DNA of 51,756 nt from Candidatus Nomurabacteria bacterium (GTDB lineage: Bacteria > Patescibacteriota > Minisyncoccia > Phycocordibacterales > UBA9973), in assembly GCA_943359475.1 (NCBI GenBank), contig CALRHK010000003.1, positions 1 through 51,756 on the forward strand, in the 5' to 3' direction. Positions 27,816 to 35,465 of this stretch are shown in pieces. Each line of letters begins with the position of its first letter. Positions within the stretch are counted from its first letter, which is position 1. Below the pieces are notes generated by a model. The model saw only the letters and a list, made by a program, of their open reading frames with translations, did not search any database and had not been told where the DNA came from. The translations under genes and the position numbers were made by a program.

Positions 27816-27899
27816 GCCGGGGTGGCGAAATTGGCAGACGCACTTGCCTTAGGAGCAAGCGGAAGTAATTCCATGGAGGTTCAAGTCCTCTCCCCGGCA
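27816..27899 (+). tRNA. tRNA-Leu (TAG)
   Basis: Acceptor GCCGGGG/CCCCGGC; anticodon arm CTTGC-CTTAGGA-GCAAG; long variable arm. Confidence 0.93.
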
Positions 27900-28070
27900 C
27901 ACGCACTGTGTGTGCGAGACTTGAAAGGCGGAGCGATGTCGAGCCAGCAGGCGAGACCGCGAGCCGGGGTCGAGAAAGTATACGAGCGTCGGCGAGTATA
28001 CTATTCGTGACCAAGTCCTCTCCCCGGCACACGCACTGTGTGTGCGAGACTTGAAAGGCGGAGCGATGTC
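27882..28070 (+). repeat. Post-tRNA-Leu(TAG) element with duplicated tRNA 3' end
   Basis: 27882-27940 and 28012-28070 are identical (59 nt, offset 130); core hairpin AGTATA-CGAGCGTCGGCGAG-TATACT at 27977-28002. Confidence 0.9.
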
Positions 28071-28095
28071 TTTCGTTGTGTTGGTGGAAATGAAT

Positions 28096-28167
28096 GGCCT
28101 AGTCGTCAAGTGGTAAGACAAGAGTCTGCAAAACTCTTATACGGCGGTTCGATTCCGCCCTAGGCCT
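28096..28167 (+). tRNA. tRNA-Cys (GCA)
   Basis: Acceptor GGCCTAG/CTAGGCC; anticodon arm AGAGT-CTGCAAA-ACTCT. Confidence 0.93.
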
Positions 28168-28312
28168 CAAAGGAAAAGCTAAGCTTTTTCTTGCGGGATC
28201 GAACGACCGGAGCGGGGCACCCATCGAGTACGATGGGTCGCGAGGTGGGGTAGCGAAATTTTACGAGCGACGGCGAGTAAAATATTCGTGACTCGATTCC
28301 GCCCTAGGCCTC
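28149..28312 (+). repeat. Post-tRNA-Cys element with duplicated tRNA 3' end
   Basis: TCGATTCCGCCCTAGGCCTC at 28149-28168 and 28293-28312; core hairpin ATTTTA-CGAGCGACGGCGAG-TAAAAT at 28258-28283. Confidence 0.9.
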
Positions 28313-28326
28313 CCACATTTAAATAT

Positions 28327-28414
28327 GCCCGGGTGATGGAATTGGTAGACATAGGGGACTTAAAATCCCCAGGCACAAAATGCCGTGCGGGTTCGATTCC
28401 CGCCCTGGGCACCA
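28327..28414 (+). tRNA. tRNA-Leu (TAA), CCA encoded
   Basis: Acceptor GCCCGGG/CCTGGGC; anticodon arm GGGGA-CTTAAAA-TCCCC; ACCA at the 3' end. Confidence 0.93.
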
Positions 28415-28617
28415 ATTACTTTTCTAATTTACAGGGAGCAGGCAAACTACTTTGCCTGCGTCGGGAATCGAAAGACTTTTCTATACGAGCGTAGCGAGGC
28501 AGAAAAGTACCTGCTGATGTAGTCAGAGATTCCCGCCCTGGGCACCAATTACTTTTCTAATTTACAGGGAGCAGGCAAACTACTTTGCCTGCGTCGGGAA
28601 TCGAAAGACTTTTCTAT
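28395..28617 (+). repeat. Post-tRNA-Leu(TAA) element with duplicated tRNA 3' end
   Basis: 28395-28484 and 28528-28617 identical (90 nt, offset 133); core hairpin ACTTTTCT...AGAAAAGT (28475-28508) with ACGAGCGTAGCGAG inside. Confidence 0.9.
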
Positions 28618-35195: not shown

Positions 35196-35266
35196 CGGGC
35201 GATGAGGGAATCGAACCCCCACCAAAGGTTTTGGAGACCTTCGTTCTACCATTAAACTAATCGCCC
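35196..35266 (-). tRNA. tRNA-Trp (CCA)
   Basis: GGGCGAT/ATCGCCC acceptor; anticodon arm AAGGT-CTCCAAA-ACCTT. Confidence 0.93.
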
Positions 35267-35465
35267 TTCTCCGCTCGTGCTCGCACAAGGCGAGGGAAGC
35301 GGAAACGCAAGGTGATGCACTAATAAAGGTGCGCCTTACTTGATTATAGCAAGATGCTATAACCCGATAAAAACGGAAAGAACAAAACAAAAAAGAAAAG
35401 TAAACTTTTCTTTTTTGTGCATTCAGTATAGCAAAAGAGGCCAACGCTGTGAAATTGAGACAATT

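What the first reader, a model, noticed from the sequence alone, without database searches (positions are those of the whole stretch)
27977..28508. Core hairpin with conserved loop and compensatory stem changes
Core hairpins: AGTATA-CGAGCGTCGGCGAG-TATACT (27977-28002), ATTTTA-CGAGCGACGGCGAG-TAAAAT (28258-28283), ACTTTTCT-atACGAGCGTAGCGAGgc-AGAAAAGT (28475-28508). The stems differ entirely but each is perfectly complementary, while the loop is nearly invariant. That is the pattern expected from selection on structure plus a recognised loop. The first two are followed by the identical 9-mer ATTCGTGAC, which abuts the tRNA 3'-end copy exactly.
Basis: seen in the sequence. Interest (0 to 1): 0.85.

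Follow-up and report, generated by a model that had tools for sequence, protein, structure and literature searches.

The report
Foldable tRNA-tail insertion elements in Patescibacteria
Next to tRNA genes in a large group of tiny uncultured bacteria sit short DNA inserts that carry a conserved folded structure and an arm matching their own tRNA; they look like miniature mobile cassettes with a folding recombination site, of a sort not described in the databases and papers searched here.

Summary
The first two hairpins are real and belong to one family (A). A covariance model built from them finds 7 copies in this genome and copies in 35 of 287 sampled genomes of the phylum. In an exact-pattern scan of 84,980 species, 31 of 32 hit stretches are titled Patescibacteria; the last is titled only 'bacterium'. 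Of 135 distinct copies, 116 lie 20-254 nt downstream of a same-strand tRNA or tmRNA. All 25 base pairs show compensatory double changes (139 sequences; 96% of cells paired). Each family A unit is [tRNA 3' half - tail - arm antisense to that tRNA - P2 - P3], followed by a second tRNA 3' end. Empty sites in relatives show that this unit entered at the T-loop. When the two tRNA copies differ, the arm matches the unit's own tRNA in 27 of 29 cases; joining the unit's ends folds P1, P2 and P3. Best reading: a split, foldable recombination site of tiny tRNA-anchored cassettes, comparable to integron attC or CTX-phi attP. The recombinase is not identified; by elimination perhaps the host's single Xer.

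The parts
27816..27900 (+). tRNA-Leu(tag); its 3' part from T-loop C56 (27882) is the left end 'a' of the unit
   Evidence: ARAGORN and Rfam
27917..27923 (+). arm Y, antisense to the tRNA T-arm (AGACTTG versus CAAGTC(C)T)
   Evidence: sequence; across the family Y complements the unit's own tRNA in 27/29 informative cases
27923..28011 (+). family A element (model R1, 107.6 bits): P2 27927-27965, GGGG linker, P3 about 27969-28011 ending GTGAC
27977..28002 (+).
28012..28070 (+). right copy: tRNA-Leu 3' end plus tail, Y and the first part of P2, i.e. the remains of a second tandem unit (59 nt, 100% direct repeat of 27882-27940)
28096..28168 (+). tRNA-Cys(gca)
28202..28292 (+). family A element (90.8 bits) with P3 ATTTTAC..GTAAAAT at 28258-28283; arm Y at about 28195-28203
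28293..28312 (+). right copy of the tRNA-Cys 3' end (20 nt, 100%)
28327..28414 (+). tRNA-Leu(taa)
28438..28459 (+). P0 hairpin (stem 9, CTAC loop; CTGC in most relatives)
28462..28472 (+). arm Y antisense to the tRNA-Leu(taa) T-arm (CGGGAATCGAA)
   Evidence: inverted repeat I2
28475..28527 (+). family B core: fixed stem ACTTTTC/GAAAAGT with variable tip, then ACCTGC and the NGA-TGTA-TCN hairpin
28528..28617 (+). second tandem copy of tRNA-Leu(taa) 3' end, tail, P0, Y and start of core (90 nt, 100%)

Best explanation
The tails are very small integrated DNA units ('cassettes', about 110-180 bp, no gene). Each enters a tRNA gene at the T-loop (after TT, before CGANTCC), less often at the tRNA 3' end, and brings a complete tRNA 3' half so that the tRNA stays functional; the original 3' end is left behind downstream. 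The conserved part (arm Y + P2 + P3) is one half of a recombination site; the other half is the unit's own left end (the tRNA 3' half). When the ends are joined, as in an excised circle or single strand, Y pairs with the tRNA half (P1) and a branched fold P1-P0-P2-P3 forms on the tRNA-sense strand. The proposal is that this fold is what a recombinase recognises, as with integron attC sites and CTX-phi attP. Shown: the family, its structure, tRNA association, insertion at empty T-loop sites, complementarity to the unit's own tRNA, folding of the joined ends. Inferred: that the site acts as DNA, that a circle or single strand exists, and that a tyrosine recombinase (host Xer) acts on it.
For: Covariation 25/25 pairs. 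116/135 copies just downstream of a same-strand tRNA/tmRNA of nearly every isotype. Occupied versus empty orthologous sites: tRNA-Leu(gag) filled in G252 and empty in G190 and G244; tRNA-Lys(ctt) filled only in G244, where the right copy equals the empty-site tRNA of the relatives and Y matches the left half. Y complements the unit's own tRNA rather than the right copy in 27/29. P1 forms in 50/73 joined ends versus 35/72 with the right copy and 9/73 with a random tRNA. Pairing starts at the base where the right copy starts, in both target types. G.T 104 versus A.C 19 at pairs: one strand folds. Tandem units of about 130-160 bp. G000, G124, G188 and G371 carry 5-10 elements but none of four tested mobility families (Y1, large serine recombinase, reverse transcriptase, IS110) and a single tyrosine recombinase each, Xer-like in the three classified.
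Against: No circle or excision has been seen. The single Xer is also present in genomes without elements. Cores do not group by tRNA isotype, so moving to a new tRNA must also rewrite the tRNA half and arm Y; a simple attC-type exchange does not explain this. No conserved integron core (RYYYAAC/GTTRRRY) is at the junction. The structure could equally be an RNA; 43 of 107 spacers have a terminator-like hairpin before the element, the rest do not.
Confidence: 0.5

Rival explanations
1. Hairpin-bearing non-autonomous transposons (REP/MITE-like) moved by a single-strand or other transposase acting in trans, with the tRNA copy as a long target duplication and arm Y copied from the target during insertion.
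For: Conserved hairpins with variable stems; dispersed copies at many tRNAs; target-matching arm made anew for each tRNA; cores not linked to isotype.
Against: No Y1 transposase in G000, G124, G174, G188 or G371; no IS110 transposase; no fixed-length duplication (8 to 90 nt); no full-length autonomous copy seen.
Confidence: 0.22
2. An RNA element of the pre-tRNA tail: the antisense arm pairs with the tRNA T-arm and acceptor strand and controls maturation, decay or termination.
For: Strand-biased G.U pairs, strong covariation, complementarity to the adjacent tRNA, presence after tmRNA too.
Against: Often behind a terminator-like hairpin (43/107); in 27 of 110 copies the arm pairs with the tRNA end and tail rather than the T-arm; patchy presence, with empty sites in sister species; the boundary of pairing coincides with the insertion junction.
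Confidence: 0.15
3. Right ends of large serine recombinase (LSR) islands, which also use tRNA 3' ends.
For: Three LSR islands (4.3, 5.0, 11.2 kb) end with the element and an exact tRNA copy.
Against: The three LSRs are unrelated (<30% identity); a remnant of the tRNA end seems to lie between island and element (clear in L178, weaker in the others); other LSR islands lack the element; G000, G371, G124 and G188 have elements but no LSR.
Confidence: 0.04
4. By-product of replication template switching at tRNA palindromes, with no dedicated enzyme.
For: Antisense arm and tRNA half form quasi-palindromes that such errors would make perfect; the conserved T-arm gives homology (inference).
Against: A conserved core of about 90 nt shared across the phylum and covarying needs selection or mobility of its own.
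Confidence: 0.09

Closest known systems
Integron cassette recombination site attC (IntI)
   Same: Site recognised by conserved fold rather than sequence, one strand preferred, extrahelical base, site split between the two ends of the integrated unit, tandem units (attC properties: PMC4792948).
   Different: Target is a tRNA gene, not attI; no integron integrase; two to three extra hairpins; the paired arm is the tRNA sequence itself; no gene in the unit; junction GTGAC|CGA instead of G|TT.
CTX-phi type single-stranded folded attP used by host XerC/XerD (IMEX)
   Same: Element without integrase, folded single-stranded site, host Xer recombinase (abstracts of PMC4246890 and PMC3089051; otherwise own knowledge).
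   Different: Target there is dif; here tRNA T-loop or 3' end; no phage genes; Xer involvement here is only inferred.
tRNA-integrating genomic islands (tyrosine or large serine recombinases)
   Same: Entry at the T-loop/3' end, tRNA restored, original 3' end duplicated downstream.
   Different: No integrase, no cargo, 110-180 bp, conserved multi-hairpin core and antisense arm.
REP/BIME elements with RAYT (Y1) transposases
   Same: Short dispersed intergenic hairpins.
   Different: Not tied to tRNA genes; no Y1 enzyme in several element-rich genomes.

Membership tests
Integron attC / gene cassette | Integron integrase (IntI) in the genome | tested here: not met
   Three tyrosine recombinases (G000, G188, G371) score 122-135 bits to TIGR02249, cut-off 265; they meet XerA-like NF040815
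Integron attC / gene cassette | Conserved fold with little sequence conservation, extrahelical bases, one strand used | tested here: met
   Covariation 25/25, bulged A 99%, G.T over A.C 104:19; strand use inferred from pair types only
Integron attC / gene cassette | R-box core RYYYAAC/GTTRRRY at crossover | tested here: not met
   Junction is GTGAC|CGANTCC
Integron attC / gene cassette | Site split between cassette ends, complementary when joined | tested here: met
   27/29 and 50/73
Integron attC / gene cassette | Cassettes carry genes, arrays grow at attI | tested here: inconclusive
   Tandem arrays exist; genes seen are in probably nested islands
Xer-exploiting element (IMEX) | Host Xer present, element has no recombinase | tested here: met
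Xer-exploiting element (IMEX) | Integration at dif with dif-like attP | tested here: not met
   Integration at tRNA genes
REP/RAYT | Y1 transposase PF01797 in genome | tested here: not met
   Absent in G000, G124, G174, G188, G371
Large serine recombinase attachment site | One cognate recombinase lineage linked to the site | tested here: not met
IS110/IS1111 (bridge RNA) | Transposase_20 PF02371 in genome | tested here: not met
   0 of 20 genomes
Retroelement / group II intron | Reverse transcriptase PF00078 | tested here: not met
   None in G000, G124, G188, G371, G336, G345, G252 or G338
Known Rfam RNA | Match over gathering score | tested here: not met
   Only tRNAs reach it

The most novel reading that the evidence does not exclude
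A new class of self-retargeting mobile element: a folded single strand whose arm is rewritten to match each new tRNA gene at insertion, moving in genomes that lack the tested transposase, serine recombinase and reverse transcriptase families, with at least two core types (A and B) sharing the same left module.
Probability: 0.25. Interest if true: 0.9.

Novelty: new variant of a known kind. Interest (0 to 1): 0.75.

Why it matters
Patescibacteria have very small genomes and, in the genomes tested here, few of the usual mobility genes. A widespread integrase-free element on their essential tRNA genes would show how such genomes gain and lose DNA, give a defined substrate for testing what their single Xer recombinase can do, and extend the rare principle of folded single-stranded recombination sites to tRNA targets.

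Tried and rejected
Large serine recombinase islands as the mobiliser: rejected because the recombinases are unrelated, remnants show nesting and element-rich genomes lack them. An integron-like gene array in G252: the cargo turned out to sit between the tRNA and a remnant of the tRNA end, so it is probably a nested insertion. Y1, IS110 and reverse transcriptase families: absent from the key genomes. Viral carriers: 16 pattern hits in viral contigs do not score as elements; no plasmid or phage match. Rfam: none for the element (weak sub-threshold hits such as sX4 at L009 overlap the tRNA and were not pursued). Kissing P0 loop (CTGC) with the AGCAG tip: tempting but not consistent across copies. 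Isotype-specific lineages: no signal. Literature: no paper found on this element.

Full report
Observation. The two hairpins with the 9-mer ATTCGTGAC are present exactly where stated. The 30-nt core recurs five times in the genome of the window and in 13 of 100 relatives, never as the reversed control. In the first loci examined the core nearly always lies behind a tRNA gene. The third hairpin has no ATTCGTGAC and is not found by the model of the first two.

Family A. An alignment of 19 copies gave a model with two hairpins: P2 (GCC GGA GC..GC GA GGC, variable tip) and P3 (lower stem, bulged A, upper stem, often a GA/GA mismatch and GNCG tip) joined by GGGG and ending GTGAC. It finds 7 copies in this genome and copies in 35 of 287 sampled genomes of the phylum. 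An exact sub-pattern hits 32 stretches in a collection of 84,980 species; 31 are titled as Patescibacteria lineages (Nomurabacteria, Taylorbacteria, Kaiserbacteria and others) and one only as 'bacterium isolate WY5.bin43'. On 139 distinct copies every one of 25 pairs shows double changes, 96.3% of cells pair, and shuffled and slid controls are far lower. That alignment was fitted to the model, so it leans towards the structure, but the margin (covariation score 0.652 against 0.166 shuffled and at most 0.085 slid) is large. G.T outnumbers A.C 104 to 19, which points to the tRNA-sense strand as the one that folds.

Place and anatomy. 116 of 135 distinct copies lie 20-254 nt behind a same-strand tRNA or tmRNA; many of the other 19 are cut by contig ends. 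By position, 73 are of the T-loop type, 27 of the tRNA-3'-end type and 10 unclassified. Before the core comes an arm Y antisense to the T-arm, often with an extra hairpin P0 (CTGC loop) and an antisense acceptor segment. Behind the core comes a direct copy of the tRNA 3' end.

What was inserted. In one genus, tRNA-Leu(gag) carries the element in G252 while G190 and G244 have an empty site; tRNA-Lys(ctt) carries it only in G244, and there the right copy is the ancestral tRNA end while the left half and Y share new bases. So the unit is [tRNA 3' half - tail - Y - P2 - P3]. Where the tRNA and the right copy differ, Y matches the tRNA in 27 of 29 cases (one of the two exceptions is a contig end). 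Joining the core's end to the unit's own left end gives a branched fold with P1 in 50 of 73, against 9 of 73 with a random tRNA; L039 folds completely, and a 109-nt piece modelled on that joined site (its first six bases are filler) has z = -5.0. This is the logic of a recombination site split between the two ends of an integrated unit.

Family B. The tail of tRNA-Leu(taa) belongs to another family with hits in 35 of 100 relatives (some hits may be the shared P0 only). It shares P0-CGT-Y-GAAAG but has an invariant stem ACTTTTC/GAAAAGT around a variable tip, then ACCTGC and a covarying hairpin with a TGTA loop; 20 of 23 extracted copies have a tRNA upstream.

Who moves it. Y1 transposases, large serine recombinases, reverse transcriptases and IS110 transposases are all absent from G000, G124, G188 and G371, which carry 5-10 copies (copy numbers). 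Each has one tyrosine recombinase; those of G000, G188 and G371 were classed as Xer/XerA-like and not integron integrases. This is elimination among tested families, not proof, and element-free genomes have the same gene. Serine recombinase islands do use the same tRNA ends (24 of 29 loci with a nearby tRNA in a mostly convergent arrangement) and three end in the element, but their recombinases are unrelated and a remnant of the tRNA end between island and element, clearest in L178 (CCGACCATGAAA), suggests they inserted into tRNAs that already carried it.

Open problem. Cores are not more alike on the same tRNA isotype than on different ones, yet each unit fits its own tRNA. Either the arm and tRNA half are rewritten at insertion, or cores are exchanged between units by recombination, of which the tRNA-Gly copy of this genome (AGTATAC opposite GTAAAAT) may be an example.

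Comparison. It works like integron attC sites (fold over sequence, one strand, split site; PMC4792948) and like the folded attP of CTX-phi used by host Xer (abstract of PMC3089051, and own knowledge), but it is not a member of either: no integron integrase, no attC core, no dif target. No Rfam family, plasmid or phage record matches and no paper was found in the open library searched, which does not cover most subscription journals.

Noticed in passing
28438-28617; G000:C1:14515-14592; L281-L307: Second family (B) of tRNA-tail elements with fixed stem ACTTTTC/GAAAAGT, variable tip and TGTA hairpin, sharing the left module with family A.
   Followed up: partly
L184-L213: 24 of 29 large serine recombinase loci of Patescibacteria have a tRNA nearby, mostly with the recombinase gene converging on the tRNA 3' end and sometimes overlapping it, suggesting a tRNA-targeting group of serine recombinase islands.
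   Followed up: partly
L151 9625-14783 (reverse strand): tRNA-Gln hot spot in G252: foreign genes that look defence-like by eye (HNH nuclease, DUF4145-like; no family search was run) absent from G190, then two elements in series 1.4 kb apart.
   Followed up: partly
L005 (G000:C26:5800-5888): P3 of the tRNA-Gly copy is a mosaic of the two window types and breaks two base pairs, suggesting recombination between copies inside one genome.
   Followed up: partly
L269 2373-2447: tRNA-Lys of G244 has a T-stem flipped from GAGGG/CCCTC to GTGGG/CCCAC relative to its relatives, in the copy that carries the element.
   Followed up: partly
L034 1501-1589: A family A element with no tRNA nearby; the upstream coding end reads like elongation factor P, so tRNA genes may not be the only sites.
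   Followed up: no
window 35264-35300: The 5' side of tRNA-Trp (minus strand) carries a related-looking CGAGCACGAGCGG/GGCGAG sequence that the model does not score.
   Followed up: no
family A and B upstream hairpins (P0): The P0 hairpin keeps a CTGC tetraloop (38 copies in family A) while its stem changes completely; the reason for the fixed loop is unknown.
   Followed up: partly
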